DNA from: Parabacteroides johnsonii DSM 18315
Lineage (GTDB): Bacteria; Bacteroidota; Bacteroidia; Bacteroidales; Tannerellaceae
DNA length: 64,000 nt
NCBI RefSeq assembly: GCF_025151045.1
Contig: NZ_CP102285.1
Location: 3,286,001 to 3,350,000, forward strand
Reading direction: 5' to 3'
Shown here piece by piece: positions 3,799 to 62,448 of this stretch. Each line of letters opens with the position of its first letter. Within the stretch, counting starts at the first letter, position 1. The position numbers were made by a program, and so were the translations under genes. The notes below the pieces were generated by a model. The model did no database searches. It had not been told where the DNA came from and saw only the letters and a program-made list of their open reading frames with translations.

Positions 3799-3974
3799 CA
3801 ATTTCTCTGAGTTCCCCGTGTGCCAAAACATTTTCCTCTGCTTGGCACACCCGTTTCCCCAGCATGGCACAGTTGTGCCAACGGCAGGAAACGCCTGTGC
3901 CATGCCGAGGGAACATCCATGCCAACGGTATGTCACAATACCGGAATAACAGGCGAATCCCGCTTCCATCGGCA
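3799..3974. repeat. 22-bp period array, TGGCACA/TGTGCCA type
   Basis: Eight consecutive 22-bp windows can be laid end to end (starts 3799, 3821, 3843, 3865, 3887, 3909, 3931, 3953). Units carry TGGCACA or its complement TGTGCCA together with GTTTCCCC or GGAAAC-type words; the unit at 3865 contains the palindrome GGCACAGTTGTGCC. The array lies directly upstream of the surE promoter. Units are diverged but the phase is kept. The same word TTCCATCGGCA occurs here (3963) and in the 45.7-kb array (45717), linking the two. Confidence 0.8.
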
Positions 3975-3989
3975 ATAGTCAAGCAAAAA

Positions 3990-4060
3990 GCGCAGACTAA
4001 CGCAGAGAGGGGGGGGACTTATCTTCTATAGATAATACCCCTCTCTACGTTACTCTGCGC
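3990..4060. repeat. Long inverted repeat with 9-bp CTGCGT words
   Basis: GCGCAGACTAACGCAGAG followed by a G run pairs with CCCCTCTCT and CGTTACTCTGCGC, giving a long imperfect hairpin with a 20-25 base loop. It continues to the right (to 4082) with CGTCCGCGT, AATTTGCGT and CCGGT at 9-bp spacing, as in the elements at 756 and 45024, but lacks their GGGTGTGTCAAA ends. It lies between rprY and surE and may end transcription from rprXY. Confidence 0.7.
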
Positions 4061-4094
4061 TCGTCCGCGTAATTTGCGTCCGGTCAAGCTCCGA

Positions 4095-4826
4095 TTAAAG
4101 AACCTGGATACCTTCTTCACGGGCAGCTTCTTCTCCTGAAGGAGTGATCAGCTTGTAGCCCTTACCGTGAATGTTGATGATTTCGATTCCCGGATCATCC
4201 TTCAACAGTTTGCGAAGTTTCGTGATATATACGTCCATGCTACGGGCATTGAAATAGTTATCGTCTACCCAGATTGTCTTCAGTGCATAATTACGTTCCA
4301 GAATTTCATTTGCATGTGCGCAAAGGAGACTCAGAAGTTCGCATTCCTTAGTTGTCAGCTTCGTGACCTTATCGCCGATAGCCAGTGTCTGTTTCTGGGT
4401 ATCGAACAAGAAGTTTCCTAACTTGTAGAAAGGAATATCTTTCATTTTCTTGCCTTTCACGCGGCGAAGGATCGCTTCGATACGGAGCAAGAGTTCTTCC
4501 ATACTGAAAGGTTTTGTCAGATAATCATCTGCACCAATTTTGAAACCTTCCAGGATATCTTCCTTCATAGTCTTGGCCGTAAGGAAGATAACAGGGATAT
4601 CAGGGTTGATGGAACGGATTTCCTGAGCCAGTGTAAAGCCGTCTTTTTTCGGCATCATCACGTCAAGTACGCAAAGGTCATATTTGCCTTTGGTGAAACC
4701 TTTGTAACCGGCTTCTCCATCGGAGAAGAGGTCAGTCACATAACCTTTTGCCTGCAAGTATTCTCTTAATAGCATACCCAGGTTCTCGTCGTCTTCGCAA
4801 AAGAAGATTTTTAGTTTTTCTTCCAT
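4095..4826 (-). CDS. rprY: Response regulator, RprY-like (OmpR family)
   Basis: A 243-residue DNA-binding response regulator. The receiver domain (residues 5-120) has the acidic pair in FFCEDDEN, the phosphorylated Asp55 in LCVLDVMMPKKDG, Thr83 and Lys105. The C-terminal winged helix (about 130-232) includes LTTKECELLSLLCAHANEIL and the recognition helix RSMDVYITKLRKLL. Sequence and pairing match the RprX/RprY system described in Bacteroides fragilis and studied in Porphyromonas gingivalis, where it is tied to envelope and redox stress. It follows the kinase gene with a 2-bp gap, so the two are co-expressed. Confidence 0.93.
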   Translation of the reverse strand: MEEKLKIFFCEDDENLGMLLREYLQAKGYVTDLFSDGEAGYKGFTKGKYDLCVLDVMMPKKDGFTLAQEIRSINPDIPVIFLTAKTMKEDILEGFKIGADDYLTKPFSMEELLLRIEAILRRVKGKKMKDIPFYKLGNFLFDTQKQTLAIGDKVTKLTTKECELLSLLCAHANEILERNYALKTIWVDDNYFNARSMDVYITKLRKLLKDDPGIEIINIHGKGYKLITPSGEEAAREEGIQVL

Positions 4827-4828
4827 AA

Positions 4829-6382
4829 CTAACTTTTTATAAGAGGTAAAGTAATAATAAATTTTGTTCCTACATTTCCGGAACCACTTTCAGCACGGAT
4901 TGTGCCTTTATGGTCCTCTACTATTTTACGGACGTAAGCAAGTCCGAGCCCGAACCCTTTCACGTCGTGTACGTTTCCTGTCGGTACGCGGAAGAAGCGG
5001 TCGAATACTTTCTTAAGGTATTCTTTCTTGATCCCGATACCGTTGTCCTCGATCGATATCAACAACTTGCCGTTCTCGTTCCAAGTGCGGCACATCAGTG
5101 TGAGCGGTACTTCGAGGCGGCGATACTTGACAGCGTTGTCCAGCAGATTGAACAGTACATTCGTGATGTGCATCTCATCCACGTATATGTCCGAATCTTC
5201 CGCCTGCAAGTCGATATCGATCGTGCCGTCATACTTCTCGACTTTCAGGGCAAATGTGTTGGCAACACTTGCCAGCAAATCGTTCGCATCTACCTCCTTC
5301 AGCTTGAGGGCCGCTTTCTGGCGCTCGAACAGCGACATTTGCAGCACCTTTTCCACCAGGAAGCCCAATCGCTTCGTCTCGTCGTTGATCACGCCAGATA
5401 TATGCTTGAACACATCGGGGCTCTTCGTGATGTCCGAGTCCTTCAGCATCTGCGCGGCAAGCGAAATGGTCGAAACCGGTGTCTTCAATTCGTGTGTCAT
5501 ATTGTTGATAAAATCATTCTTCATTTCCGAAAGTCTCTTCTGACGGAATACGATATAAATGGTAAAGATAAACGTTACCAAAAGTATCAGCGAGAAGATG
5601 ATCGACGGTACAATAAATGTTACAGAACTTGAAATATAATCACCCTTCGTCGGGAAATACACTTTCAGGTAGTTCTGCTTCGAAGGAGGATCGTTGGGGA
5701 ACAGCACCTGTTGAATCACGTCTGATACAGGAGGAATATCCCCGTTCTGATAGACGATCTTTCCGTCTTTGTTAATAACAGCAAAGACGAACGGCAGGTT
5801 CAATCCGTTGTTAACAAATTCTGATTTTAAGTAATTATTCAGCTTTTTAAAATCTATCCTTTCTTCGATCGGCTTCAGGTTCGCCGTGTGCAAGATATTC
5901 AAGATCACTTCGTTAAACAACCCGCTTTGGTACTGGTAACGGCGTTTCAGCGTTTGCTGCAAATCTTTTGACGTACTAACGATGCTGTTAGGTACTTTAT
6001 TGCTGCCCAGCGAAGGAAGCGGTTCGAACTTGCGTGTCCGGATGTCGCTATGAAACTCGATATGTTCTACGGTTCCGTCGGCATTGGTGAACTGCATCTT
6101 ATATTTTTTCTCGGTGATGATCCCACCGCCGAGGCTGCTCTGTCCGTTCTGATATAGATAGTTATTGGCCTCGTCACGGCTGAGATCTTCTTCCAGATAC
6201 CGGGCCGTTTCGTCAAGCTCCAGATTCTTCGAGACTTGGTGCATCGATCGTTTGACAGTTTCATTGAACTGCTCGCTACTTTTCTTGAGTATGATACTTA
6301 CATATTTCACCTGCAAAAAGAGCAAACCGGCAAAGGCAAAAGCCATCACCACCGCAAGCAACCAAATCGTAGACTTCCTCAT
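4829..6382 (-). CDS. rprX: Sensor histidine kinase, RprX-like
   Basis: A 517-residue membrane kinase. A first transmembrane helix covers about residues 6-25, a periplasmic sensor region about 26-252, and a second helix about 255-279. The HisKA dimerisation helix has FINNMTHELKTPVSTISLAA, with the phosphorylated His297. The ATPase part shows the N box (LFNLLDNAVKYR), the G1 box (ISIEDNGIGIKKEYL) and the G2 box (GFGLGLAYVRKIVEDHKG). It forms an operon with rprY just downstream. The periplasmic domain has no recognised fold, so the signal is unknown. Confidence 0.94.
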   Translation of the reverse strand: MRKSTIWLLAVVMAFAFAGLLFLQVKYVSIILKKSSEQFNETVKRSMHQVSKNLELDETARYLEEDLSRDEANNYLYQNGQSSLGGGIITEKKYKMQFTNADGTVEHIEFHSDIRTRKFEPLPSLGSNKVPNSIVSTSKDLQQTLKRRYQYQSGLFNEVILNILHTANLKPIEERIDFKKLNNYLKSEFVNNGLNLPFVFAVINKDGKIVYQNGDIPPVSDVIQQVLFPNDPPSKQNYLKVYFPTKGDYISSSVTFIVPSIIFSLILLVTFIFTIYIVFRQKRLSEMKNDFINNMTHELKTPVSTISLAAQMLKDSDITKSPDVFKHISGVINDETKRLGFLVEKVLQMSLFERQKAALKLKEVDANDLLASVANTFALKVEKYDGTIDIDLQAEDSDIYVDEMHITNVLFNLLDNAVKYRRLEVPLTLMCRTWNENGKLLISIEDNGIGIKKEYLKKVFDRFFRVPTGNVHDVKGFGLGLAYVRKIVEDHKGTIRAESGSGNVGTKFIITLPLIKS

Positions 6383-6646
6383 ATCAATAAATCTCTCGTT
6401 TTTAATGTCACAAATAACGCGCCTTTTAATTTAATATTCACACAAAAAAGGTAAAAACAAAACACCTTAAGTGTTAAAAATGCATTACCAAAGGACCGCT
6501 ATTCTCTTCCTATCTATTTTTAAACTAACACCTTACACCTCTCCACAGGCGTATTATCATATCCTATACATTCCGTACTAACTAATAAAAACAGCTATAC
6601 AAGGTGAATTGTTGCAGCCGACACTTAAAAACTTTTCCCGAAAGCA

Positions 6647-6675
6647 TTGACTTTTAATTATTAACTCTATCTTTG
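6647..6675 (+). promoter_or_regulatory. Promoter of the lipid acyltransferase pair
   Basis: TTGACTTTT at 6647 and TATCTTTG at 6668-6675 match the -33 (TTTG/TTG) and -7 (TAnnTTTG) elements of Bacteroidetes promoters with a spacing of 17 bp. The start codon of the first gene is 22 bp beyond the -7 box. Confidence 0.7.
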
Positions 6676-6697
6676 CCTCTCGTAAGAATTACGTGAA

Positions 6698-7522
6698 ATG
6701 ACACAAGAAGGTATTACACAGATAGACATCCAACAGGTATTACGGCAAAAGGCGCCTTCGGCCGTCCGTAAGATTCCCGGCTTTATAGTCCGCTATCTGA
6801 TCCGAACTGTTCATCAGGAGGAACTGAACGACATCCTCCGCCGGTATCACGATAAAGACGGGGTAGCGTTCATGCAGGAGTTGATCGGATATTTTGACTT
6901 GAACCTGGAATTGGTAAACGAGGAGAATATTCCTTCCGAAGGGCGGTACATATTCGCTTCCAACCACCCGCTGGGCGGACTGGACGGAATTTGCCTGTCG
7001 GCCATTATCGGCGGACGCTTCGACGGGAAGATCCGCTACCTGGTAAATGACCTGCTGCTCTACCTGTCCAACCTGAGATCGATCTTCGTCCCCATCAACA
7101 AACATGGGGCGCAGGGGAAAAAGAACGCCGAACTGATCGAAAAGGCTTATGCTTCGGACAACCAGATCATCACATTTCCTGCCGGCTTATGCTCACGCAA
7201 ACAAAACGGAAAGATACAGGATCCCGAATGGAAGAAGTCGTTTATCCAAAAGGCCGTGGAATACCGGCGGGACATCGTACCGGTGTTTTTCGAAGGACGT
7301 AACTCCAACTTTTTCTACCGTCTCGCCAACGTGCGGAAAGCATTGGGTATAAAGATGAATTACGAAATGATCTACCTGCCCGACGAGATGTTTAAAAGCA
7401 AACACAAGACATACCGCATCCATTTCGGGAAGCCGATTTCCTGGCAAACCTTCGACAGTAGCCGTAAACCGGCAGAGTGGGCAGAATGGATGAAGGAGGT
7501 CGTCTATAATCTAAAGAAATAA
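6698..7522 (+). CDS. glsA: Lyso-lipid O-acyltransferase, GlsA/OlsA-like
   Basis: A 274-residue acyltransferase of the PlsC superfamily. The catalytic block is ASNHPLGGLDGICLS, with His90 and Asp96; the glycine-rich variant and the spacing are those of the OlsA-type enzymes. A second block, FPAGLCSRKQNGKI, corresponds to the acceptor-binding motif. It is followed after 13 bp by a GNAT-type acyl transferase. In Bacteroides such a pair (GlsA and GlsB) makes glycine lipids, with GlsB adding the amide-linked fatty acid and GlsA the second, ester-linked one. The assignment rests on family resemblance and gene order; the amino-acid head group cannot be read from sequence. Confidence 0.82.
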   Translation: MTQEGITQIDIQQVLRQKAPSAVRKIPGFIVRYLIRTVHQEELNDILRRYHDKDGVAFMQELIGYFDLNLELVNEENIPSEGRYIFASNHPLGGLDGICLSAIIGGRFDGKIRYLVNDLLLYLSNLRSIFVPINKHGAQGKKNAELIEKAYASDNQIITFPAGLCSRKQNGKIQDPEWKKSFIQKAVEYRRDIVPVFFEGRNSNFFYRLANVRKALGIKMNYEMIYLPDEMFKSKHKTYRIHFGKPISWQTFDSSRKPAEWAEWMKEVVYNLKK

Positions 7523-7535
7523 TTGATTTTATTAT

Positions 7536-8507
7536 ATGCAAGACATTATCAAACCGATTGACCGTGCTCTCCTGAAAGCTGAACTGACCGGGGACAAGAA
7601 GCTGCGGAGAACCAACAAATCCAATAATGAGATATACATTGTCACAGCCCACGACTCTCCCAACGTGATGCAGGAAATCGGACGACTCAGGGAAATCGCT
7701 TTCCGATATTATGGAGGCGGGACCGGCTTTCCGGTCGATATCGACGAATACGACACGATGGACGATGCTTACCGCCAACTTATCGTATGGAGTCCTGAAG
7801 ATGAACAAATTTTGGGTGGTTACCGCTTCCTCTGCGGTTCGGACGTAAAGTTCGACAAAACCGGCAAACCTGTTTTAGCAACTTCCCATCTGTTTAGTTT
7901 TTCCGATAAGTTCAATAAAGAATATTTACCGTACACGGTCGAGCTGGGCCGTTCGTTCGTGACGCTGGAATACCAGTCAACCCGTAGTGGCAGCGCAAAG
8001 GGACTGTTCGTTTTGGACAATCTTTGGGATGGCCTGGGGGCTCTTTCCGTGGTAGATCCCAGCTTGCAGTATTATTTCGGGAAGGTAACGATGTATAACA
8101 CCTACAATTCCGAAGCCCGCAACATGATCCTGTATTTCCTGAACATGCACTTCCCCGATCCGGAGAAACTGATCACTCCGGCTTGTCCTTTGGAAACAGA
8201 CACGGACCTAAAAAAGATGCAGGAGCTTTTCAAGTATGACAACTTCAAGGACAATTATAAAGTGTTGAACCAAGAAGTTCGCAAGTTCGGCATCAATGTG
8301 CCGCCGCTGGTCAATGCTTATATGAGCCTTTCCCCTAAGATGCGCGTATTCGGCACAGCTATCAACCATGAATTCGGGGAAGTGGAAGAAACCGGCATCT
8401 TGATCGCTATCGACGAGATTCTCGAAGACAAAAAGAAGCGTCATATCGAGACCTATCTGAACGAGGAAGGCAAATCGGCTGACCTGATACGCAAGACCGA
8501 CATCTAA
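7536..8507 (+). CDS. glsB: N-acyltransferase for amino lipids, GlsB/OlsB-like
   Basis: A 323-residue GNAT-fold protein of the OlsB/hemolysin-like class. The fold-defining part is about residues 45-190, with REIAFRYYGGGTGFPVDIDE, a strand LGGYRFLCGS and the ELGRSFVTLEYQ block. A family-specific C-terminal extension follows. It transfers a 3-hydroxyacyl chain from acyl carrier protein to the amino group of an amino acid; in Bacteroides that amino acid is glycine. It is the second gene of the pair that starts at 6698 and ends in a strong bidirectional hairpin, so the unit is probably two genes only. Confidence 0.82.
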   Translation: MQDIIKPIDRALLKAELTGDKKLRRTNKSNNEIYIVTAHDSPNVMQEIGRLREIAFRYYGGGTGFPVDIDEYDTMDDAYRQLIVWSPEDEQILGGYRFLCGSDVKFDKTGKPVLATSHLFSFSDKFNKEYLPYTVELGRSFVTLEYQSTRSGSAKGLFVLDNLWDGLGALSVVDPSLQYYFGKVTMYNTYNSEARNMILYFLNMHFPDPEKLITPACPLETDTDLKKMQELFKYDNFKDNYKVLNQEVRKFGINVPPLVNAYMSLSPKMRVFGTAINHEFGEVEETGILIAIDEILEDKKKRHIETYLNEEGKSADLIRKTDI

Positions 8508-8512
8508 AAGAT

Positions 8513-8552
8513 AAAAGCCTATATCCTTTGTTCAAAAAAGATATAGGCTTTT
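8513..8552. terminator. Bidirectional terminator between convergent genes
   Basis: AAAAGCCTATATC pairs perfectly over 13 bp with GATATAGGCTTTT across a 14-base loop, between the ends of the GlsB-like gene and the DUF3109 gene. The A tract on one side and T tract on the other allow it to work in both directions. It is formed by the first two units of a 22-bp period array. Confidence 0.8.
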
Positions 8553-8606
8553 GCCTCAAAGGGTATAGGCTTTCCGGAAGAAAGCCCTATCTTTTTACTC
8601 TTCGCT
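8519..8606. repeat. 22-bp period array, TATAGGCTTT type
   Basis: Four windows of 22 bp (starts 8519, 8541, 8563, 8585) share a consensus of TATAGGCTTT, a variable centre and an A-rich end with AAAGG or AAAAG. Some units carry the complement (AAAGCCCTATC). The same consensus recurs in the array at 25386-25495. Confidence 0.8.
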
Positions 8607-9179
8607 CTTCTGTTTCTCCCACTCTCCGGCAATCTCCTCAAGAGCCTCGTACCATTCCTTTCCGAAACGGCGGATCAGCGGTTCCTTCAGAAACTTATAG
8701 ACCGGGAGTTTTTCTTTCTTACCCAATATCTCTGCGGCCTTGCAGATATTCCAGCGATTATAATTAACAGCTTCGAACGTATCGTACTTTTCCACACGTA
8801 TCGGGTACAGGTGGCAGGAAACCGGTTTATAGAAAGAGAGCTTCCCCTCGCGATAAGCCTTCTCCACCGCACATTTGCAAGTTCCGTCCGCATCATAGCA
8901 GGTAAAAACACAGTCTTTCCCGTTCACGATAGAAGTCACCAAGTCTCCCTCTTCATCAATATAGGCAACGCCTTGTTTCTTGATGATTTCCTGAGCTTTC
9001 GGCGCCAGATCGTCCCAGATAGCCGGAAGAGCTTTTTCCAGTTCGCCTACCTCTTCCTCCAGCAGGGGTGCGCCGGAATCACCTTCCACACAGCAAATGC
9101 CTTTGCAATGCGACAGATCACATAAAAACTGACGTTCGAGGACGTCGAGGCTGACCAGGGTATTGTCGATTTGTATCAC
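8595..9179 (-). CDS. DUF3109 family cysteine-rich protein
   Basis: A 194-residue cytoplasmic protein conserved in Bacteroidetes. Conserved cysteines lie in CDLSHCKGICCVEGDSGAP (about residues 19-37), in KDCVFTCYDADGTCKCAVE (about 88-106), in YKPVSCHLYPIRV and in NRWNICKAAE, a pattern that suggests a metal or iron-sulfur site. Related proteins are known only as DUF3109. It converges on the GlsB-like gene and is followed in its own upstream region by an inverted heptamer repeat next to gpmI. Function is not known. Confidence 0.85.
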   Translation of the reverse strand: MIQIDNTLVSLDVLERQFLCDLSHCKGICCVEGDSGAPLLEEEVGELEKALPAIWDDLAPKAQEIIKKQGVAYIDEEGDLVTSIVNGKDCVFTCYDADGTCKCAVEKAYREGKLSFYKPVSCHLYPIRVEKYDTFEAVNYNRWNICKAAEILGKKEKLPVYKFLKEPLIRRFGKEWYEALEEIAGEWEKQKSEE

Positions 9180-9188
9180 GATGAAAGA

Positions 9189-9252
9189 ATTTATGATTTA
9201 TGATTTATGATTTATGATTTATGCATCGACAATAAATCATAAATCATAAATC
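9189..9252. repeat. Inverted heptamer arrays (TTTATGA) between gpmI and DUF3109 gene
   Basis: Five TTTATGA-type units run from 9189 and about three ATAAATC-type units run to 9252, with only CATCGAC between them. A transcript would fold into a tight, AU-rich hairpin. The right edge lies at the gpmI stop codon and the left edge ends nine bases from the DUF3109 start codon. Confidence 0.9.
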
Positions 9253-9253
9253 T

Positions 9254-10771
9254 TCAGTTTTTAATCAAATCATTTCCTGTCATATCAGCCGGCTGTGCCA
9301 TACCCAAAATGTGCAGGATAGACGGAGCCACATCGGCCAGGACACCGTTTTCCACTTTTGCATTTTTGTTTTCTGTCACATATACAAAAGGAACAGGGTT
9401 CAGAGAGTGGGCCGTGTTGGGAGTGCCGTCTTCGTTGAGTGCGTGATCGGCATTACCGTGGTCGGCGATGATGATCACTTCATAACCGTTGGCTTTAGCA
9501 GCTTCGACAGTGTCTTTCACACAGTTGTCGATAGCAGTTACCGCCTTCTCGATAGCGCTGTAGATACCGGTATGGCCTACCATGTCGCCGTTAGCATAGT
9601 TTACGACGATAAAGTCGAACTTCTGTGTATGGATAGCTTCCACCAATTTGTCTTTTACTTCGTAAGCGCTCATTTCCGGCTTCAGGTCGTAAGTGGCAAC
9701 CTTCGGACTCGGAACCAAGATGCGCTCTTCAGCCTTGTATGGAGTTTCGCGACCACCGTTGAAGAAGAAAGTCACGTGAGCATACTTTTCCGTTTCAGCG
9801 ATATGAAGCTGGGTTTTCCCGTTTTCAGCCAGGTATTCTCCCAATGTATTCTGGACATTTTCCTTATCGAACAGGATATGAACACCTTTGAAAGAAGCAT
9901 CGTACGGAGTCATGCAATAGAACTGCAAGCCGGGGATCGTATGCATGCCCTGTTCCGGCATATCCTGCTGAGTCAGCACGACAGTCAGCTCTTTTGCACG
10001 GTCGTTACGGTAGTTGAAGAAAATCACGACATCACCTTCTTTGATCGTACCGTCTACAGTAGCGTTGTTGATCGGCTTGATAAACTCGTCGGTCACGCCT
10101 TCATCATACGATTCCTGCATGGCCTGAACCATATCGGTAGCCTGTTTGCCCTTGCCTTCAACCAACAAATCATAGGCTTCTTTCACGCGTTCCCAACGTT
10201 TGTCACGGTCCATTGCATAGAAACGACCGACGATGGATGCGATCTTTCCGGCCGACTGTTCACAATGGGCCGTCAATTGTTCGATAAATCCTTTACCGCT
10301 CTTCGGATCTGTATCGCGACCGTCCATGAAGCAGTGGATGAAAGTATTGTCGATTCCGTATTCTTTGGAGATATCGCAAAGTTTGAACAGGTGATCGAAA
10401 GAACTGTGTACACCACCATTGGAGGTCAACCCCATGAAATGGATGTTTTTGCCATTTTCTTTGGCATAAGAGAAGGCAGAAACGATTTCAGGGTTCTTCA
10501 TGATGCTGTTGTCGGCACAGGCACGGTTGATCTTCACCAAATCCTGGTAAACGATACGTCCGGCCCCGATATTGAGGTGTCCGACTTCAGAGTTACCCAT
10601 TTGTCCGTCAGGCAGCCCGACGTTTTCGCCGCTTGCCTGTAACTGTGAATGAGGATAAGTGGCCAGCAGGCTGTCCCAATAAGGAGTGGGAGTGTTAAAG
10701 ATTACATCGTCTTTACCTTGATCGCCGATACCCCAGCCGTCAAGAATCATTAAAAGGGCTTTCTTGCTCAT
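9254..10771 (-). CDS. gpmI: 2,3-bisphosphoglycerate-independent phosphoglycerate mutase
   Basis: A 505-residue two-domain enzyme of the alkaline phosphatase superfamily that interconverts 3- and 2-phosphoglycerate in glycolysis using two manganese ions. Seen in the sequence: MILDGWGIG with metal ligand Asp11, [17 protein letters not shown] with the phosphorylated Ser61, [14 protein letters not shown] in the substrate domain, and [13 protein letters not shown] plus [11 protein letters not shown] with the second metal site. Length is typical. A TATCTTTG promoter box lies 49 bp upstream, and the gene downstream is DUF3109. Confidence 0.98.
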
Positions 10772-10819
10772 GATTGCTTAATTATTATATTGTTTATACT
10801 CATTTTCGTTATCCGGGCG

Positions 10820-10827
10820 CAAAGATA
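10820..10827 (-). promoter_or_regulatory. -7 box upstream of gpmI
   Basis: TATCTTTG on the minus strand matches TAnnTTTG, 49 bp before the gpmI start. Just to the right, GCTTATCTT at 10883 and AAGATAAGC ending at 10913 form an inverted repeat between the two divergent genes. Confidence 0.55.
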
Positions 10828-10947
10828 ATGCAAACCAAGAGCAGAATAAAACGAACTTGTTCATTTTTTATGCCCAAGTGCCGCTTATCTTCGCCTTTAG
10901 GGCAAAGATAAGCAATTCCGGACATATATTGTTTGCCTGGAAAACAT

Positions 10948-10955
10948 TACTTTTG
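10948..10955 (+). promoter_or_regulatory. -7 box upstream of the YgjP-like gene
   Basis: TACTTTTG matches TAnnTTTG and lies eight bases before the ATG at 10964, which implies a very short leader. No well-spaced -33 element is evident. Confidence 0.45.
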
Positions 10956-10963
10956 TAAACGAT

Positions 10964-11999: not shown

Positions 12000-12031
12000 A
12001 AATACTATTATTATTTTATCAGTTTCGTCAA

Positions 12032-25346: not shown

Positions 25347-25385
25347 CTATCTTCCTATCGTATTTGCTATAATCTTCGGAAAAGA

Positions 25386-25495
25386 CTATAGCTTTTGCGG
25401 CAAAAGGCTATAGCTTTCTTGAAAAAAGACCATAGGTTTTCCAACGAAAGGTCATAGCCTGTTCCCGCGCTTGACGCGGGGACAAGGCCTATTCG
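25386..25495. repeat. 22-bp period array, CTATAGCTTT type
   Basis: Five 22-bp windows (starts 25386, 25408, 25430, 25452, 25474). Three begin CTATAG or CCATAG and end in AAAAGG, AAAAGA or GAAAGG; the last two form the hairpin GTTCCCGCG / CGCGGGGAC. The consensus matches the array at 8519-8606. It fills the gap between murG and the murC promoter and supplies the TAG stop codon of murG. Confidence 0.82.
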
Positions 25496-29296: not shown

Positions 29297-29383
29297 TTGA
29301 TTTATGATTTCTTTATTCATTTATGATTTATAATTTATGATTTATGCGTCGATAATAAATCATAAATTATAAATCATAAATCA
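29297..29383. repeat. Inverted heptamer arrays (TTTATGA) between mraY and murD
   Basis: TTTATGA-type units at 29297-29345 face ATAAATC-type units at 29354-29383 with GCGTCGAT between them. Same sequence class as the arrays at 9189 and 43349. The array abuts the murD start and begins within three bases of the mraY stop. Confidence 0.88.
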
Positions 29384-30661: not shown

Positions 30662-30743
30662 CAGTTGAAAGTCGAGAGTTGAAAATTGAAAGTTATGTTC
30701 AGCAGCATTTAACTTTCAACTTTCACCTTTCACCTTTCAACTC
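30662..30743. repeat. Inverted heptamer arrays (AACTTTC) between murE and mraY
   Basis: GTTGAAA-type units at 30662-30694 face AACTTTC/ACCTTTC-type units at 30711-30743. The right-hand array contains the TGA stop codon of murE. Confidence 0.88.
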
Positions 30744-43348: not shown

Positions 43349-43429
43349 CTTTATGATTTATGATTTATGATTTATGATTTATGACTTGCCAGCTGGGACA
43401 TAAATCATAAATCACAAACCATAAATCTT
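43349..43429. repeat. Inverted heptamer arrays (TTTATGA) between pyk and the O-methyltransferase gene
   Basis: About five TTTATGA units at 43349-43383 face ATAAATC-type units at 43400-43429 across CTTGCCAGCTGGGA. The left array touches the start codon of the O-methyltransferase. Confidence 0.9.
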
Positions 43430-44896: not shown

Positions 44897-44932
44897 TAAA
44901 TTGACAATTGACAATTGATAATTGACAATTTA
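44897..44932. repeat. Single heptamer array (ATTGACA) upstream of pyk
   Basis: Units ATTGACA, ATTGACA, ATTGATA, ATTGACA in one orientation, ending about 12 bp before the pyk start. Confidence 0.85.
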
Positions 44933-45023: not shown

Positions 45024-45176
45024 GAGGGTGTGTCAAAGTGATATTACCGGACGCGGATGACGCAGAATACGCAGACGGACGCAGATTTATTTTGCTAATA
45101 ATTAATAATATCTGCGTTAATCTGCGCTCTTCTGGGTTGTCTGCGTCCCATGAATACCGATATTTGACACACTCTC
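45024..45176. repeat. MITE-like element with GGGTGTGTCAAA ends (second copy)
   Basis: Begins GAGGGTGTGTCAAAGTGATA and ends ATATTTGACACACTCTCC. The core has two facing blocks of 9-bp words (GACGCGGAT, GACGCAGAA, TACGCAGAC on the left; ATCTGCGTT, AATCTGCGC on the right), so it can fold end to end. It is the reverse of the element at 756-849 with about 60 bp more in the middle. It touches the stop codon of aroQ. Confidence 0.75.
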
Positions 45177-45666: not shown

Positions 45667-45907
45667 TTATGAATTATGAAGTATGATTCCGCCTTCGTTC
45701 CCCGCCTACCTGACGGAAGTTCCATCGGCATGAAACTTTTGTTTCCCGCCAGTGAAACTAAAGTTTCCCCGGATGAAACAAAAGTTTCGTCCAAAGGAAA
45801 CAGTTGAAACTTTTGTTTCAACTCCGGAAGCCCTGTGAAACTTTTTTCCAAAGCCCCACGAACGCCTTCCGCCAATCATACATCATAACTCTAAAATCAT
45901 ACATCAA
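45667..45907. repeat. 22-bp period array (GAAAC-GTTTC) nested between facing heptamer remnants
   Basis: Between aroQ and xerD. The centre (about 45700-45868) has units starting at GAAAC with spacings 22, 21, 22 and then 31 (9+22); single units form palindromes such as GAAACTTTTGTTTC and GAAACTAAAGTTTC. The outer edges are ATGAATTATGAAGTATGA at 45669 and TCATACATCATAACTC near 45877 followed by ATCATACATC, a facing pair of heptamer type. The word TTCCATCGGCA also occurs in the 3.8-kb array. Confidence 0.8.
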
Positions 45908-54641: not shown

Positions 54642-54721
54642 ATTTACAATAGTCAAATTAAAACTTTAAAACAGTATGTACAAATATTTTATCGATATAT
54701 ATCCTCGATCCAAGACATAAT

Positions 54722-54768
54722 ATACCCGTCTGCCGATCCTTTTAAACCAGGAAATAACAGACGGGTAT
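54722..54768. terminator. Intergenic hairpin between FAD oxidoreductase and GH2 genes
   Basis: ATACCCGTCTG and CAGACGGGTAT pair perfectly over 11 bp with a 25-base loop. No T run follows on the minus strand, so it more likely protects or separates parts of the message than stops transcription. Confidence 0.55.
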
Positions 54769-54778
54769 CCAACTTACA

Positions 54779-56158: not shown

Positions 56159-56172
56159 ATAATAATACTTAT

Positions 56173-57654
56173 TTACCATCCTGGAGTTTGCTCCAATAAC
56201 TTATTTGCATCCAATTCTGTCACAGGTATAGGCAACAGATAATGTTTTTCCTCTACCACAGCACCAATAGTCGGATTCTGTGCCATCATGGCTTCCTTCA
56301 ACTTATGCGTACGTACCAAGTCAAAACGACGTTGTCCTTCAAATGCAAATTCTTTACGACGTTCCAAAAGAATTACATCCAAAAAATCTTCTTTACTCAA
56401 TCCAGGCTTAATATCAATAGCAGAAGCCTCGTTCATATTAAGTCCAAAAGCCCTACGACGTATGACATTTAAGCACTCATACGCCTCTGCATCAGAAGTA
56501 TTAATTGCATTCAAGGCTTCCGCACGCATTAAATAGACGTCCGAATAACGTAATATCGGATAATTATTTTCCCCTCCTTGAGATCTTACAGCCAACGGCG
56601 AAGGATCCTGAAATTTATTTACATAACAAGGAAACTCATAGTTGGAAGACATATTCGGATACTCTTCTTTCGTATAAAGACGAACATTTATATCCCGACG
56701 CAAATCACCTTCCTCGTAACATTCATAATGATTACGGGTCACAGGGTCATCACCATATCCTACCCATCCGTTTATATTTACGAAAGGAGGACGGTAATAT
56801 CCGTTATAATTACTACCAGACACACCCGGTGTATTTCGTTTAAACTGAATTTCAAAAATAGATTCCTGTCCATTTTCTTTTTCTACATCAAAGTTATCAG
56901 CATAGTTATCCCATAGTTTATAACCCATCTGCATTACTTCAGATGTCTCCTTCACTACATTTTGGTAATCTTCACGAGTCAAATACACCTTTGCCAACAT
57001 AGCAGAAGCGGAACCTTTCGTTGCCCGTCCTAAGTATCCTTCCGGAAGTTGATCGATAGTAGGAAGAACAGATTTCGCTTCTTGCAAATCTGAAATAATC
57101 TGTTCATAACACTCGTCAACTGTATTCCGGGGAACTTCCAAACCATCCAACGAAGTAGTTTGTTTCAATACTAAAGGAACTCCTCCGTATACGCGGACCA
57201 AATTAAAATAGGCTAATGCACGTAAAAATTTAGCTTCTCCAATCAGTCTCTTTCTGGCATCATCCTTTATCTGGTCGTTCCCCATATTCGAAATATTTTC
57301 TATTGCGAAATTAGAGCGATTAACTGCGACATAGTGCTTAATCCAAACGGAATAAACCAAATTCGTATTTCCATCATACTCAAATTTATCTAAAGCATTT
57401 TTGTCCAGGTTGGTCGTTGTGCGACCACCACTCCACTCGCAATCATCAGTTCCCTGGCTTTGCAATACTTCCCAAAACTGATTATAAATATCATTATCAG
57501 TAAAAACAGAATACGTTCCATAGACAGCAGCAGTTGCATCTTCTTCGGATTTAAAGAAGTTTTCAGGACTCAGATTGGACTCCGGTATCAGATCCATATC
57601 CGTACATGAGCTCATCATGAGCGAACTCAATATTATAAATGCTATTTTTTTCAT
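56173..57654 (-). CDS. SusD/RagB-type glycan-binding lipoprotein
   Basis: A 493-residue surface lipoprotein. The signal peptide IAFIILSSLMMSS is followed by the lipid-modified Cys in SCTDMDLIPES. The helical SusD fold is shown by LSPENFFKSEEDATAAVYGT near the N-terminus, the TPR-like KFLRALAYFNLVRVYGGVPL block and the C-terminal LLERRKEFAFEGQRRFDLVR. It covers the SusC channel and captures glycan on the cell surface. It follows susC with a 17-bp gap. Confidence 0.95.
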   Translation of the reverse strand: MKKIAFIILSSLMMSSCTDMDLIPESNLSPENFFKSEEDATAAVYGTYSVFTDNDIYNQFWEVLQSQGTDDCEWSGGRTTTNLDKNALDKFEYDGNTNLVYSVWIKHYVAVNRSNFAIENISNMGNDQIKDDARKRLIGEAKFLRALAYFNLVRVYGGVPLVLKQTTSLDGLEVPRNTVDECYEQIISDLQEAKSVLPTIDQLPEGYLGRATKGSASAMLAKVYLTREDYQNVVKETSEVMQMGYKLWDNYADNFDVEKENGQESIFEIQFKRNTPGVSGSNYNGYYRPPFVNINGWVGYGDDPVTRNHYECYEEGDLRRDINVRLYTKEEYPNMSSNYEFPCYVNKFQDPSPLAVRSQGGENNYPILRYSDVYLMRAEALNAINTSDAEAYECLNVIRRRAFGLNMNEASAIDIKPGLSKEDFLDVILLERRKEFAFEGQRRFDLVRTHKLKEAMMAQNPTIGAVVEEKHYLLPIPVTELDANKLLEQTPGW

Positions 57655-57671
57655 AAACTACTTAGACTCTT

Positions 57672-60600
57672 TTAGAATTTAACATTCAAACCAAACAATA
57701 CAGATTTTGCAAATGGATAAGAGAATGCATCATATCCGGCTCCCAAGTTATCTTGACCATATTTACTAACTTCTGGGTTATCACCGGAATAGCTTGTTAT
57801 TGTAAAGAAATTCTGCAAAGACGCATACACCCGTAATCCCGATACATACTTTGTAAAGTTCAAAAACTCAGCAGGTACATTATAACCTAACGTAATATTC
57901 TGGAAGCGCAAATAAGAACCGTTTTCCACATATTGGTTGGAAACACGCATCACAGCCTTTGAACGGAGCGGACGTGGCAACGGAGCGTTTTGATTATCAG
58001 GCGTCCAATAATTCATTGTTGAAGCAAACATATTTGTTGATCCCTGCATATTCTCCATAGTAACTCTCGTACCATTATAAACATCATTTCCGATCGTAAA
58101 AATCGTATTTACATTCAAATCAAAATTTTTGTAAGAGAATGTGTTATTGAATCCTCCAAAGAGTTTTGGCTGTGCACAACCGATAATCGTACGGTCAAGG
58201 TCGTTGATCACTCCGTCAGGAACGCCATCCGGGCCGCTAATATCTTTATAGCGAATATCACCCGGTTTAGCGGTCGGCTGGGCAGAAGAAGCTATATCAT
58301 CCGTCGTACTGAAAAGTCCGTCATACACATATCCGTAGAACGTTCCTAAAGGTTGTCCGACCTGTATGATACGTCCTAAATGTATTCCGGTTTCATCCTG
58401 GCCCGGCTGGCTTGGATAAATAAACGAGACATCACCCAAATCCAATACTTTATTCTTGTTATAAGTAAGGTTTAAACTCGTATTCCAAGTAAAATCACCT
58501 TCAATCGGTGTTGCATTGATAGCCAATTCAAAACCTTTATTTTCGACTTCTCCAATATTTTTCAGGCCAGAAGAGAAACCTGAAGACCCCGGCACTTTCA
58601 CTTTCAACAGCAAGTCACGGGTTTTCTTGTAATAACCATCGATAACTACAGTCAAACGATTATTAAAGAAACCGAAATCGATACCGGCATCGAACTGGGA
58701 AGTTGTTTCCCACTTCAGATTCGTATTGGCAACTTGCGACGGATAATAGCCAGTCACCTTATCTCCACCTGCCACATAACCATTCGAGCCCAATAAAGCA
58801 TACGCCGGATAAGTACCAATTCCATCTTGGTTACCTGTGATACCGAAACTTACACGAGGTTTCAAATTACTAAAGATATTCAAATCTTTAATAAAAGGTT
58901 CTTCAGAAGCTCTCCATGCCAAAGCCGCAGAAGGGAAATATCCCCAGCGGTTGTCCGAACCAAAACGGGATGAACCGTCTGCACGAATAGAAGCAGTCAA
59001 TAAGTATTTATTATTCACAGTGTAGTTAACACGGGCCAGATAAGAGTTCAAAGCCCATTTCTTAACTTCAGACCCCGGAGCCGTATAAGTCGTACCCGAT
59101 CCTAAATTATTCATCTGCAAATTATCATTCAAGAAACCATAAGAACCGGCATTAAAACCATCATAAGTCGATTGCTGTTGCGTATATCCGACCATACCCG
59201 TAAAAGAGTGTACACCCCATGTATTCGTATAAGTCAAGATATTTTCATTAATCCACGTATAAGTGTTATTAGATACTTTTTTGGCTTCTCCACTTTTTTG
59301 GCTACCGGAATAGACAGAACGGGGATTATAACTTTTGTTAGTGGCATAATCGATATCAATACCAAAAGAAGATTTGAACTTCAGTCCTTTAATTATATTC
59401 CACTCAACAAATGCATTGTTTAATGAGCGGAAACTGGTATGCCAATCCACCTTTTCGTTTATAACTCCAACCGGATTGTCGAATGTAATGACACCATTGT
59501 TGTCACTAAACGTATAACTTCCGTCATCCTGCATCACAGGCAAATTCGGCGGCGTAGTCAAACGAGACTGCAAAACAGAATTTCCGACACGGTTATTATC
59601 AACCTTCGTCATCGTCAAACTCAACCCTAAATTTATTGTTGAAGAAATCTTATGATCGATATTGGCCCGGAAAGCATATTTTTTCATTTCGGATGCTTTG
59701 ATGACGCCCTCCTGATCGAAGTAATTGAAAGAAGTCAAGAAAGTCGTTTTATCATTACCGCCAGAAACAGTCAACTGGTAGTTTTGCGTCAGAGCATTCT
59801 TATTGGATGTCAAATCCTGCCAATCCGTTGTAGCAGGAATCAGGCTTTCATCATAAATCGCTGCACCACCTGAATTTACCAATGCCTCATTTGCCAGTCT
59901 CTCAAATGAGCGGGAATCCAGCAAGTCGTATTTCTTATAGATATTCTGAATGCCCCAGTAGGCATCAAACGCAACAGAGGTTTTTCCACTTTTACCTTTT
60001 TTGGTTGTTACTATGATAACACCGTTAGCACCACGGGAACCGTAAATAGCTGTCGAAGAAGCATCTTTCAGAACTTCTATCGATTCAATATCCGATGTCG
60101 GGATCGAGTTCAGCGGGCTTAATGCCGTCTGGCTTGCATCCGCACTCGGATAAACAGGCATACCATCAATGATATACAACGGTTCGTTACCACCAGAAAT
60201 AGAGTTACCTCCACGGATACGGACAGTAGAACTTGCACCCGGCATTCCTGAATTCTGCACCATATACAAACCGGACGTACGTCCCTGCAACATCTGGTCT
60301 ACGGATTTCACGCTGATTCCCTGCACCTTATCAACTTGAATGGAACCGACAGCACCGGTCAAGTCGCTTTTCTTTACCGAACCGTAACCGATCACAACCA
60401 CTTCTTCCAAATTCTGGGTATCTTCGGATAAGATAATCTTCAAAACAGACTGGCTACCTACAGGCACTTCCTTAGTCAGATAACCGATGTAAGACACGAC
60501 TAACGTTGCAGTAGGCTTGTCCAATGCTAAGGTAAACTTACCATCGACATCCGTCACTGTTCCAACTGATTCTGAACCTTTTTCGACCACGTTGGCACCA

Positions 60601-61052
60601 ATAATAGGCTCACCATTGATATCCGTAATCACACCACTAACCGTTTTACCCTGCTGTGCTGACAAAGGGATTGTAGTCGTCGTTCCACCTGCGGACAGTA
60701 ATATATATGAACCATCGACAGAATATTTCACATCCGTTCCGGCGAACAGATTTGCCAAGACTTCCTCCAGAGAGGCTTTCTTCAAATTAACAGACACTTT
60801 TCTGTCCACATTCACAAACTTGTTGTAAATAAACAGATAATCAGTTTGTTTCTCAATATCGTTCAACACATTCTCTAGTTCGGTGTTACTTCTTTTGATC
60901 GTAACATTTACATTCTGAGAACTGGAGTTTTCTGCGTGCATGCAGAAAATGAACACGAATAATAACAAAGTGGTTATTCTCATGACTCTAAAAAATTGTT
61001 TACATCGAGATCTTTTTACAGAATAAGACATCGACAAAGATTTTTTATTCAT
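57672..61052 (-). CDS. SusC/RagA-type TonB-dependent glycan transporter with STN domain
   Basis: A 1126-residue outer-membrane receptor. After a signal region (hydrophobic TTLLLFVFIFC) comes an STN domain (about 50-115: NVTIKRSNTELENVLNDIEK, then YNKFVNVDRKVSVNLKKASL), which passes the substrate signal to a FecR-type anti-sigma factor. Next are a carboxypeptidase-like domain (about 135-210), the TonB plug (VVVIGYGSVKKSDLTGAVGS, GSRGANGVIIVTTKKGKSGK) and the 22-strand barrel, ending in an aromatic residue (GLNVKF). The STN domain, together with the sigma and FecR genes upstream, marks trans-envelope control as used for host-glycan loci. Confidence 0.96.
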   Translation of the reverse strand: MNKKSLSMSYSVKRSRCKQFFRVMRITTLLLFVFIFCMHAENSSSQNVNVTIKRSNTELENVLNDIEKQTDYLFIYNKFVNVDRKVSVNLKKASLEEVLANLFAGTDVKYSVDGSYILLSAGGTTTTIPLSAQQGKTVSGVITDINGEPIIGANVVEKGSESVGTVTDVDGKFTLALDKPTATLVVSYIGYLTKEVPVGSQSVLKIILSEDTQNLEEVVVIGYGSVKKSDLTGAVGSIQVDKVQGISVKSVDQMLQGRTSGLYMVQNSGMPGASSTVRIRGGNSISGGNEPLYIIDGMPVYPSADASQTALSPLNSIPTSDIESIEVLKDASSTAIYGSRGANGVIIVTTKKGKSGKTSVAFDAYWGIQNIYKKYDLLDSRSFERLANEALVNSGGAAIYDESLIPATTDWQDLTSNKNALTQNYQLTVSGGNDKTTFLTSFNYFDQEGVIKASEMKKYAFRANIDHKISSTINLGLSLTMTKVDNNRVGNSVLQSRLTTPPNLPVMQDDGSYTFSDNNGVITFDNPVGVINEKVDWHTSFRSLNNAFVEWNIIKGLKFKSSFGIDIDYATNKSYNPRSVYSGSQKSGEAKKVSNNTYTWINENILTYTNTWGVHSFTGMVGYTQQQSTYDGFNAGSYGFLNDNLQMNNLGSGTTYTAPGSEVKKWALNSYLARVNYTVNNKYLLTASIRADGSSRFGSDNRWGYFPSAALAWRASEEPFIKDLNIFSNLKPRVSFGITGNQDGIGTYPAYALLGSNGYVAGGDKVTGYYPSQVANTNLKWETTSQFDAGIDFGFFNNRLTVVIDGYYKKTRDLLLKVKVPGSSGFSSGLKNIGEVENKGFELAINATPIEGDFTWNTSLNLTYNKNKVLDLGDVSFIYPSQPGQDETGIHLGRIIQVGQPLGTFYGYVYDGLFSTTDDIASSAQPTAKPGDIRYKDISGPDGVPDGVINDLDRTIIGCAQPKLFGGFNNTFSYKNFDLNVNTIFTIGNDVYNGTRVTMENMQGSTNMFASTMNYWTPDNQNAPLPRPLRSKAVMRVSNQYVENGSYLRFQNITLGYNVPAEFLNFTKYVSGLRVYASLQNFFTITSYSGDNPEVSKYGQDNLGAGYDAFSYPFAKSVLFGLNVKF

Positions 61053-61101
61053 ATCTTTGGAAATAAAGTTTATTAATACAGTTAAATAATTGTGTTAAGC
61101 T

Positions 61102-61138
61102 ATGCCGATAAGTGTGGGGACACTTGTCGGCATTTTTC
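61102..61138 (+). terminator. Hairpin between fecR and susC
   Basis: ATGCCGATAAGTGT pairs with ACACTTGTCGGCAT across GGGG and is followed by TTTT on the plus strand. On the coding (minus) strand the run is on the wrong side, so it may instead control the step between fecR and susC expression. A perfect palindrome AAAGGTTAACCTTT lies next to it at 61145-61158. Confidence 0.6.
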
Positions 61139-61195
61139 TCAATAAAAGGTTAACCTTTCTCCTTTATCATAGGCATTATATTTTAAGATTAGACA

Positions 61196-62137
61196 TTACT
61201 TTATATAGATGACCGATTCATCTTTATTCCGTTCAAACGTATATTTGGCATCTTTTTGCAGAATACGCAGTGCCTTGTCTATACCGTCCGATATCCGGAA
61301 TTTACCACTACAGATATAATCGGCTAATTTAGGGTTCTCTATAATAATATGTATACCGTAGCATTTTTCAAAACGAGACATCAACTCCTTAAAATGCATA
61401 CTCTTAAAACAAATTAATCCCTCTTTCCAACGGAAAGGATCAAAATCCGCAATCGGTTTCGACTGCAAATGTCCGTTGATCCAAGAAACCTGTTGATTAG
61501 GTGCCAAGACCAAGCTCTCCGACGGATTCCCTTTATCCGACACCCGTACCGAGCCTTCCATCAGCGACGTGCAGAAATCCTCAGAGTCGCTATATGCTTC
61601 CACGTTGAACTTTGTCCCCAGTACCTCGACATTACACTTGTTAGTCTGAACAACAAAAGGTTTGTCATCATTGTGAGTCACCTCGAAATAAGCCTCTCCA
61701 TCCAGAGTTATCTCTCGCTTATTGCCCGTAAAGGCAGCAGGATAACACATTTCGGAACGGGCATTCAGCCAGACGTTCGTACCATCCGGCAAAGTCAGAT
61801 TGGCTCGCTGACCGGCAGGAACCTTGATCGTATTCATTGCCTCTCCTATCTTCCTGATTTCCGACTTATAGAAATACGTTCCGCAGGCGACAGTAATAGC
61901 AAACACGGCAGCAATCTTCATGGCTTCGAACAAGACAGTCCGGTAAAAAGGACGGGATTTCTTTTCCGTCCCAGCCGACTTCGTGCTACCCGACAGAATC
62001 ATCGCATCGAAAAACTCTCGTTCTCTGAAAAGCATTTGCTCGTTTTCGGGAGAGGATTCCAGCCAGATACGGACAGCTTCTTTCTCTTCACGAGAAGCTT
62101 TTCCGTCAAAGAATTTATATAGTGTTTCTTTTTCCAT
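61196..62137 (-). CDS. FecR-type anti-sigma factor
   Basis: A 313-residue inner-membrane regulator. The cytoplasmic N-terminus (about 1-75) binds the sigma factor and has EKETLYKFFDGKASREEKEA; the transmembrane helix is near MKIAAVFAITVACGTYFYKS. The periplasmic FecR domain follows (VPAGQRANLTLPDGTNVWLN, TLDGEAYFEVTHNDDKPFVV) and then the DUF4974 domain (FKSMHFKELMSRFEKCYGIH). It receives the signal from the SusC STN domain. It lies between the sigma gene and susC with spacings of about 300 and 140 bp. Confidence 0.93.
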   Translation of the reverse strand: MEKETLYKFFDGKASREEKEAVRIWLESSPENEQMLFREREFFDAMILSGSTKSAGTEKKSRPFYRTVLFEAMKIAAVFAITVACGTYFYKSEIRKIGEAMNTIKVPAGQRANLTLPDGTNVWLNARSEMCYPAAFTGNKREITLDGEAYFEVTHNDDKPFVVQTNKCNVEVLGTKFNVEAYSDSEDFCTSLMEGSVRVSDKGNPSESLVLAPNQQVSWINGHLQSKPIADFDPFRWKEGLICFKSMHFKELMSRFEKCYGIHIIIENPKLADYICSGKFRISDGIDKALRILQKDAKYTFERNKDESVIYIK

Positions 62138-62294
62138 TTTTTCCGTTTCTGTTTATAAAGCAAATAAGCAGGAAATATCCCTAACGGAAAAGGAAACTTT
62201 TTTTGAAAAAATTTTCATAACGTAAAAAACAGAGCCAAAGGAAAGCGAAAACAGTAGGCTAATAATTCTGGTCGGACACCGTGTATTTGAAATT

Positions 62295-62448
62295 TACCTG
62301 CCAAGTATTCCGATTTACTCTCCAAGTATCGGGATTTTTCCGTCGAGTAATCGCCTGTCGACAACCGTCAGCACGCTTGTTGACAACTGTCAGCAAACTT
62401 GCCGACAATTATAAGCAGGCTTGCCGACAATTGTCGACAGGCAAGTAT
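62295..62448. repeat. 22-bp period array next to the sigma gene
   Basis: Seven consecutive 22-bp windows (starts 62295, 62317, 62339, 62361, 62383, 62405, 62427). The last four begin ACAA and share CTTGCCG, CTTGTTG or GGCAAG near the end; CGACAATTGTCG is a perfect palindrome near 62425. The first two share CCAAGTAT and GATTT. The array lies between the sigma gene and fecR and supplies the sigma gene's TGA stop. Confidence 0.85.

What the first reader, a model, noticed from the sequence alone, without database searches (positions are those of the whole stretch)
3799..62448. A family of intergenic arrays with a constant 22-bp period but changing unit sequence
Five loci (3.8, 8.5, 25.4, 45.7 and 62.3 kb) can each be cut into consecutive windows of 22 bp that align with each other. 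The period is kept (one 21-bp exception) while unit sequence differs by locus: TGGCACA, TATAGGCTTT, CTATAGCTTT, GAAAC-GTTTC and ACAA-CTTGCCG. Many units hold a palindrome of the form GAAAC-n4-GTTTC, and neighbouring units often carry one word on alternate strands. Twenty-two bp is close to two helical turns, so repeated words would lie on the same DNA face. This is not CRISPR: there are no unique spacers. Porphyromonas gingivalis is reported to carry a tandem repeat of similar length inside a MITE, so a Bacteroidales-wide family is possible, but I know of no function.
Basis: seen in the sequence. Interest (0 to 1): 0.78.

Follow-up and report, generated by a model that had tools for sequence, protein, structure and literature searches.

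The report
Two-turn-phased binding-site arrays between genes
Short rows of DNA words placed two helix turns apart are scattered between the genes of this gut bacterium; they look like rows of landing sites for a protein, and the same word and spacing turn up inside replication genes of bacterial viruses, which suggests a protein to test.

Summary
Confirmed: each of the five window loci matches itself at lag 22 (0 of 400 shuffles each). In a 26% genome sample lag 22 stands out in 36 of 608 intergenic regions (shuffles 1.0; 3 of 1015 coding regions), with 44; only 14 and 21, from separate heptamer arrays, reach like counts. By proportion, about 140 arrays per genome.
Words differ by family. In the main one (45.7 kb; 3.8 kb is a variant) dyads GAAAC-n4-GTTTC lie 21, 22 or 31 bp apart, whole helical turns. 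Between eight orthologous array pairs half-sites differ at 8.8%, centres 31%, linkers 41%, and dyad halves do not covary: protein recognition rather than hairpins.
Lead: in 12 viral contigs with this word and phase, the array lies in a replication-initiator gene in 4 (3 more weaker); off-phase control 1, reversed word 0. This genome has one initiator-like Lin1244_N gene carrying 21-bp-phased sites; all 7 genus genomes with 20 or more array places have such a gene, 11 of 29 others too, and some array genomes lack it. Best reading: iteron-like arrays, binder unproven. The 8.5, 25.4 and 62.3 kb words stay unexplained.

The parts
3797..3984 (.). 3.8-kb array: 22-bp spaced cores GGCACACCCGTTTC, GGCACAGTTGTGCC, GAAACGCCTGTGCC (variant half-sites of the main family), in a segment of about 185 bp missing from both sister genomes
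   Evidence: lag-22 score 18, 0 of 400 shuffles; empty in G063 and G057, AAGCAA at both edges against G057; G110 has a different-word 22-bp array there
8513..8584 (.). 8.5-kb array, AAAGCCTATATC / GATATAGGCTTT words, between convergent genes; by eye it doubles as a terminator hairpin
   Evidence: lag-22 score 15; sisters have other hairpins there, by eye
25373..25458 (.). 25.4-kb array, AAAAGNCTATAGCTTTT words, between murG and murC
   Evidence: TRF period 22; lag 22 score 22, lag 44 score 20; present in G063, absent in G057 and in P. massiliensis L066
45732..45841 (.). 45.7-kb array of the main family: cores at 45732, 45754, 45775, 45806 (spacing 22, 21, 31) and a half-site at 45837
   Evidence: orthologous array in G057
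62352..62442 (.). 62.3-kb array, GACAATTGTC / CTTGCC words, 4 units
   Evidence: lag-22 score 37; 2 units in G063; like words in G080 locus L156, by eye
62292..62337 (.). further 21-bp repeat beside the 62.3-kb array
   Evidence: TRF

Best explanation
The arrays are rows of protein-binding sites placed on one face of the DNA. In the main family each site is a 14-bp dyad of two 5-bp half-sites (GAAAC or GAAAA; GGAAC, GGCAC as variants) with a free 4-bp centre; neighbouring dyads are two turns (21-22 bp) or three turns (31 bp) apart so that bound dimers line up. SHOWN: period, phasing, half-site conservation, lack of covariation, gain and loss between species. INFERRED: that a protein binds, and that it is, or descends from, a phage-type replication initiator of the Lin1244_N kind, some of whose genes carry the same word in the same phase like in-gene iterons. 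Chromosomal copies would then be iteron-like arrays scattered as small polar elements; whether they are decoys, spread selfishly, or organise the chromosome is open. The other word families (8.5, 25.4, 62.3 kb) share only the phasing and would need other binders. My split: protein-site reading about 0.65; Lin1244_N-type binder for the main family about 0.3.
For: Pairs of like 5-4-5 dyads in the sampled intergenic regions (L018 left out) are spaced 22 (21 pairs), 44 (9), 31 (2), and 21, 43, 52, 53, 63, 66 (1 each), with 25 and 50 (1 each) off-phase; shuffles at most 0.2 and CDS at most 1 at any spacing. A pattern allowing linkers of 2-32 listed only 7, 8, 17, 18, 29, 30 (listing partial). Eight orthologous array pairs: half-sites 26/294 differ, centres 36/115, linkers 89/216, flanks 123/617. 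Dyad halves are exact complements in 56 of 90 units (24 G000 arrays) against 55.1 when half-sites are dealt anew within arrays. Viral contigs: GAAAC word with linker 7-8 in 12 contigs, linker 11-14 in 1, reversed word in 0, GGCAC word in 2. Seven of the 12 array-bearing ORFs were scanned: 3 pass the Pfam Lin1244_N cut-off, 4 match PHROG replication-initiation families, 3 are weaker. Host Lin1244_N genes: GAAAC at 417/459/480 (G000), 411/432/453 (G098), six GTTTC 21 bp apart (G006); 0 of 1015 sampled G000 CDS reach 3 of 5 such steps. The sites are encoded in the low-confidence linker 132-195 of the model. Phyletic: 7 of 7 genus genomes with 20 or more array places have a strong Lin1244_N match against 11 of 29 others, Fisher 0.004; G178, array-rich in another family, is one of 4 of 60 order genomes with Lin1244_N.
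Against: No binding was tested. G063 (single contig, 99% complete), G096 and G108 have 12-14 places but no Lin1244_N match. Several genomes have the gene and few or no places: G092 and G114, with close homologues of the G000 protein, have 0 and 1; G006, with six in-gene sites, has 0. The association is not corrected for kinship and the cut at 20 was chosen after seeing the counts. G060 (20 places) shows no match to the G000 protein. By my count only 3 of the 21 Lin1244_N-type genes read reach 3 of 5 phased steps; those of G178 and G106 do not. Raw half-site density in the G000 gene is only mildly raised (6 against 2.1, P 0.02). The viral link rests on 12 contigs. G290, with 63 places, was not tested for the gene. 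Arms were called by motif, which favours their conservation, and pairs vary from 0/40 to 7/30 arm differences; centres and linkers change faster than the flanks. Families B, C, E, F, G do not carry the GAAAC word.
Confidence: 0.42

Rival explanations
1. They are parts of small non-autonomous mobile elements (MITE-like), without a host role; the unit word is the binding site of a transposase and the period reflects how it docks.
For: Polar ends seen in several species (16 of 17 rows look real, but the signature was drawn from the same data); a segment of about 185 bp with the 3.8-kb array is cleanly absent in G057, with AAGCAA at both edges here; a 22-bp array inside a dispersed element of 300-430 bp in G063 and L019; lineage bursts: element D 62, 49, 19 and 5 copies, G290 63 places against 0 in a congener.
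Against: No terminal inverted repeats or consistent target duplications were established; no transposase was sought; orthologous sites are often both occupied, with changed words (10 of 12 pairs, a set biased to shared sites).
Confidence: 0.3
2. Sites of a chromosome-organising (nucleoid) or insulating protein that needs two-turn phasing, with loose sequence demand, which would explain several words with one period.
For: Arrays follow the make-up of intergenic regions: 23 tandem, 8 divergent, 6 convergent among 356, 114, 95; several word families share the phase.
Against: Half-sites are kept within the main family; counts of the two-unit pattern differ strongly between sister species (53, 40, 12).
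Confidence: 0.12
3. RNA-level elements: hairpins acting as terminators or mRNA 3' stabilisers.
For: 10 of 23 tandem arrays start within 15 nt of a stop codon (3.1 expected, p 0.0001); the 8.5-kb array takes the place of other hairpins in sisters, by eye.
Against: If 50, 80 or 100 nt before the next start are kept free for promoters, 5.6, 6.8 or 8.2 are expected (p 0.009, 0.05, 0.20). No covariation. G-U 9 against A-C 6 mispairs in the sense strand, too few to show a bias. Arrays occur between divergent genes. No Rfam hit at gathering score in the window.
Confidence: 0.08
4. Neutral minisatellites: slippage and gene conversion homogenise units within an array, and words drift.
For: Unit gain or loss in whole units (62.3 kb: 4 against 2 units in G063); words alike within and different between arrays.
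Against: Does not explain one period for unrelated words, nor half-sites that differ 3.5 to 4.7 times less than centres and linkers of the same units.
Confidence: 0.08

Closest known systems
BrickBuilt MITE of Porphyromonas gingivalis (PMC4596501; abstract, sections 5 and 8, part 1 of section 7 read)
   Same: Intergenic dispersed tandem units of about two helical turns in a Bacteroidales species, predicted stem loops, varying copy number between strains
   Different: 23-nt unit, up to 22.8 copies, leader and tail, ends like IS5-family elements, 19 loci; here 21-22 bp, mostly short arrays, several words, about 140 arrays by proportion
Iterons of phage replication origins, e.g. lambdoid ori in the middle of gene O (PMC7466680, passages read)
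   Same: Repeated sites bound by an initiator and lying within the initiator gene; the same layout is seen here for the GAAAC word in some viral contigs and some host Lin1244_N genes
   Different: Chromosomal arrays lie between unrelated genes in large numbers; no origin activity is known or tested
REP/REPIN and other dispersed palindromes (PMC3733652, PMC3116915; search listing only)
   Same: Short palindromic repeats in high copy outside genes
   Different: Recalled: tagged hairpins tied to RAYT transposases; not tested here

Membership tests
BrickBuilt MITE | 23-nt tandem unit | tested here: not met
   period 22 or 21
BrickBuilt MITE | leader and tail with terminal inverted repeats | tested here: inconclusive
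   polar ends in part of the arrays, no clear inverted ends
CRISPR array | near-identical repeats with unique spacers of tens of bp | tested here: not met
   linkers mostly 7-8 bp, repeats variable
MITE | target-site duplication at filled against empty sites | tested here: inconclusive
   one case, AAGCAA at 3.8 kb against G057
Phage-type iteron array | sites in helical phase | tested here: met
   in viral contigs 12 in phase against 1 off-phase
Phage-type iteron array | same sites within an initiator gene | tested here: met
   viral contigs L326, L327, L328, L329 and host genes of G000, G098, G006; not in the genes of G178 and G106
Phage-type iteron array | bound by the initiator and active as origin | not testable with these tools
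   needs binding and replication assays
REP/REPIN | RAYT transposase in the genome | not tested
   no search made
Known RNA family | Rfam match | tested here: not met
   no match at gathering score in the window

The most novel reading that the evidence does not exclude
A phage-type replication initiator (Lin1244_N), now a resident chromosomal gene, recognises many of the iteron-like arrays scattered between genes of Parabacteroides: either a domesticated initiator turned into a chromosome-wide DNA-binding protein, or a site family that spreads by mimicking phage origins or soaking up initiator. The two-turn phasing in unrelated word families would then reflect several such protein-word pairs.
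Probability: 0.25. Interest if true: 0.87.

Novelty: new variant of a known kind. Interest (0 to 1): 0.68.

Why it matters
About 6% of the sampled intergenic regions of a gut Parabacteroides hold a class of phased sites for which my searches found no description. If a resident phage-type initiator binds them, it would tie bacterial dispersed repeats to phage replication and give a concrete protein, sites and assay. Even if not, the phasing and half-site conservation give a clean case of repeats kept by recognition and not by base pairing.

Tried and rejected
Hairpin or cruciform selection: not favoured, because halves do not covary and mispairs show no clear strand bias. Terminator or operator role for all arrays: not favoured, orientation-blind; the stop-codon excess fades once promoter space is kept free. 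Element D first looked like a one-way promoter element (14 of 15); with 38 of the 62 copies read it is 20 divergent, 16 tandem, 1 convergent, 1 undefined, so it goes with promoter regions but is not one-way. Apparent left end GGTAAAAAGTTTC: in L018 and L282 it contains the stop codon of the gene before it, by eye. My note guessing ECF or SusC genes beside D was not borne out by the proteins. A plasmid search with the 45.7-kb array gave six weak partial hits. Literature searches (listings, and passages of PMC5771137, PMC7366714, PMC10434189) showed no description of these arrays; (22-bp, tandem repeat, intergenic, Bacteroidetes) returned none; only open-licence PMC papers are held, so this is no proof of absence. 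A PDB sequence search with the Lin1244_N protein gave one chance-level row (E 0.33). The script label 'transaldolase-like' was wrong; the gene is a GNAT acetyltransferase.
Full report
WHAT WAS CHECKED. The window is G000:C1:3286001-3350000 of a 4,749,455-bp single-contig genome. Each of the five loci was tested alone against 400 dinucleotide shuffles: lag-22 self-match scores were 18, 15, 22, 11 and 37, never reached by a shuffle; lag 22 was the best of 53 lags in four loci, and at 45.7 kb the best lags were 21, 22 and 31.

GENOME-WIDE. In the window plus 59 stretches (L018 left out, because it was chosen off-grid and holds a known array) 36 of 608 intergenic regions have a lag-22 match scoring 12 or more, against 1.0 in shuffles (mean of three) and 3 of 1015 coding regions; lag 44 gives 18 against 0.7. 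Only lags 14 and 21 (49 and 37 regions), from a separate heptamer class, are as high; 8, 16 and 42 show 8-10. A smaller, looser test also showed 66. By proportion this is about 140 arrays in the genome (inference). In 120-kb samples the lag-22 peak recurs in G080 (3 of 56 regions against 0.1) and G084 (5 of 46 against 0.4), where the heptamer lags are near background.

ANATOMY. Thirty-eight arrays were catalogued. Words differ: GAAAC/GAAAA/GGAAC/GGCAC dyads (main family), AAAAGCTATAGCTTTT, CAAAACATATATGTTTTG, TAACCCTATGGGTTA, GACAATTGTC with GCAAGCTTGC, CAAAAGCCCTTTTG, and a non-palindromic element D. Twenty-two of 38 are palindromic beyond what their period gives (column permutation p<0.05). 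A periodic array with one dyad has a second dyad half a period away, so such arrays are rows of alternately inverted 11-mers. Like 5-4-5 dyads are spaced 22 bp (21 pairs), 44 (9), 31 (2) and 21, 43, 52, 53, 63, 66 (1 each); 25 and 50 occur once each. A search allowing linkers of 2-32 listed only 7, 8, 17, 18, 29 and 30 (partial listing). All but the 25 and 50 are close to whole helical turns.

SURROUNDINGS. Window neighbours are SurE and a response regulator (3.8 kb), a GNAT acetyltransferase and DUF3109 (8.5), a Mur ligase and a glycosyltransferase 28 (25.4, the murC-murG junction), dehydroquinase II and a tyrosine recombinase (45.7), FecR and a sigma-70 factor (62.3). Arrays do not follow gene orientation: 23 tandem, 8 divergent, 6 convergent, 1 undefined, among 356, 114 and 95 regions. 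In tandem regions 10 of 23 start within 15 nt of the upstream stop, 3.1 expected, but 5.6, 6.8 or 8.2 expected if 50, 80 or 100 nt before the next start are kept free.

EVOLUTION. Against sisters G063 and G057 the 3.8-kb array is absent in both (about 185 bp), with AAGCAA at both edges against G057, while G110 has another 22-bp array there with other half-sites. The 25.4-kb array is in G063 and not in G057. The 45.7-kb array is in G057, whereas G063 has a heptamer hairpin there. The 62.3-kb array has 2 units in G063 and 4 here; G057 was not covered. The 8.5-kb site has other hairpins in both, by eye. In 12 further pairs printed, a set biased to shared sites, 10 have arrays in both species, sometimes with other words (L289 against L192), one is degenerate and one not comparable. 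In eight aligned pairs half-sites differ at 26/294 (0/40 to 7/30 by pair), centres 36/115, linkers 89/216, flanks 123/617, flanks including gene ends. Exact complementarity within units (56 of 90) equals the within-array expectation, 55.1. I read this as recognition of each half-site, not base pairing.

SPREAD. The two-unit GAAAM pattern is in 31 of 118 family genomes and 23 of 36 of the genus: 53 places here, 40 in G057, 12 in G063; backward controls are 0 to 3 except 7 in G108. With the exact GAAAC word 5 of 198 order genomes match: G000 13, G014 7, G008 3, G178 15, G290 63; the one congener of each of G178 and G290 in that sample has 0. Other words were not searched across the order. In six G178 stretches lag 22 stands out in 6 of 63 regions against 0.0, and the six arrays shown share GTTTCCCACT-type edges by eye; my ORF caller puts two of them in coding DNA.

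THE LEAD. In IMG/VR the word with linkers 7-8 is in 12 contigs, with linkers 11-14 in 1, the reversed word in 0, the GGCAC word in 2. Seven of the 12 array-bearing ORFs were scanned: L326, L327, L328 pass the Pfam Lin1244_N cut-off and, with L329, match PHROG replication-initiation families; L320 and L322 match DUF6291 below its cut-off and PHROGs of unknown function; L319 only weakly a RepA domain. In several (L326, L327, L320, L322) the frame gives ETxVS-type repeats. The other five, not scanned, are L318 (a small ORF with ETTVS repeats), L321 (an intergenic array that looks bacterial), L323 (end of a phage gene), L324 and L325 (doubtful ORFs). Lambdoid phages likewise have their iterons in gene O (PMC7466680). 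This genome has one Lin1244_N gene; at 21-bp steps it carries GAAAC at 417, 459 and 480, G098 at 411, 432 and 453, and G006 six GTTTC; none of 1015 sampled G000 coding regions, which do not include this gene, reaches 3 of 5 steps. By my count 3 of 21 genes read reach it; G057, G080, G090 and G092 have two. The gene is syntenic in G057 beside TCA-cycle genes, here also beside a type I restriction system. Its model has a confident N-terminal domain and a low-confidence linker 132-195, where the in-gene sites are encoded (13 sequences, mean pLDDT 69.9). Among 36 genus genomes 18 have a strong match; all 7 with 20 or more array places are among them (Fisher 0.004, rank test 0.005, G118 and G119 dropped because absent). 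In 60 order genomes Lin1244_N is in 4, including both array-rich ones. Against: G063, G096 and G108 have arrays without the gene; G092, G114 and G006 have the gene with 0-1 places; G060 has no match to the G000 protein; the genes of G178 and G106 lack a phased in-gene array; kinship is not controlled.

VERDICT. The arrays are best read as phased protein-binding rows; for the main family a phage-type initiator is a concrete but unproven binder. The other words are unexplained. Closest known: BrickBuilt for setting, phage iterons for working.

Noticed in passing
window 2896-3012, 9189-9252, 29319-29383, 30663-30742, 43350-43427, 44899-44930: Heptamer arrays (AGTTGAA, TTTATGA and others), mostly as inverted arms around a variable loop; lags 7/14/21 peak in G000, G063, G057 and are near background in the G080 and G084 samples. 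The 45.7-kb array sits in such a loop, by eye.
   Followed up: partly
G000, e.g. L011:9724-9810, L170, L189; 62 copies, none listed in the window: Element D (TTAAAAAATATTACCC plus 22-bp units): 62 copies here, 49 in G057, 19 in G110, 5 or fewer in the other 35 genus genomes searched (exact 16-mer); 20 of 38 copies read lie in divergent regions, 1 convergent. One copy lies about 360 bp before the Lin1244_N gene, one before a gene that looks like Cas9 by eye (L196); relatives lie on Bacteroides plasmids, two of which list cfxA within 2.5 kb.
   Followed up: partly
window about 755-851 and 45026-45172: A MITE-like element with GGGTGTGTCAAA ends and GCAGA-rich arms, absent at the same places in G063 and G057; near 726-744 it abuts a remnant of an AAAAGCCTATAACTT array that is longer in G063.
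   Followed up: partly
L148:4216-4650 (G063) and L019:8809-9106: A dispersed element of about 300-430 bp carrying a conserved 22-bp array (GACCAGTGTCAAAAGGGCTTTTGACC), a MITE-with-minisatellite layout like BrickBuilt.
   Followed up: partly
G290 (unnamed, 2.3 Mb, family f86): 63 places of the exact GAAAC two-unit pattern against 0 in a congener, which suggests a recent burst; presence of Lin1244_N there not tested.
   Followed up: no
L374 from 10492 and L375 from 10389: The Lin1244_N gene overlaps a second gene and is followed by small genes, one amidase-like by eye (AmpD match E 0.009, far below cut-off); it looks like a resident phage-derived module.
   Followed up: partly
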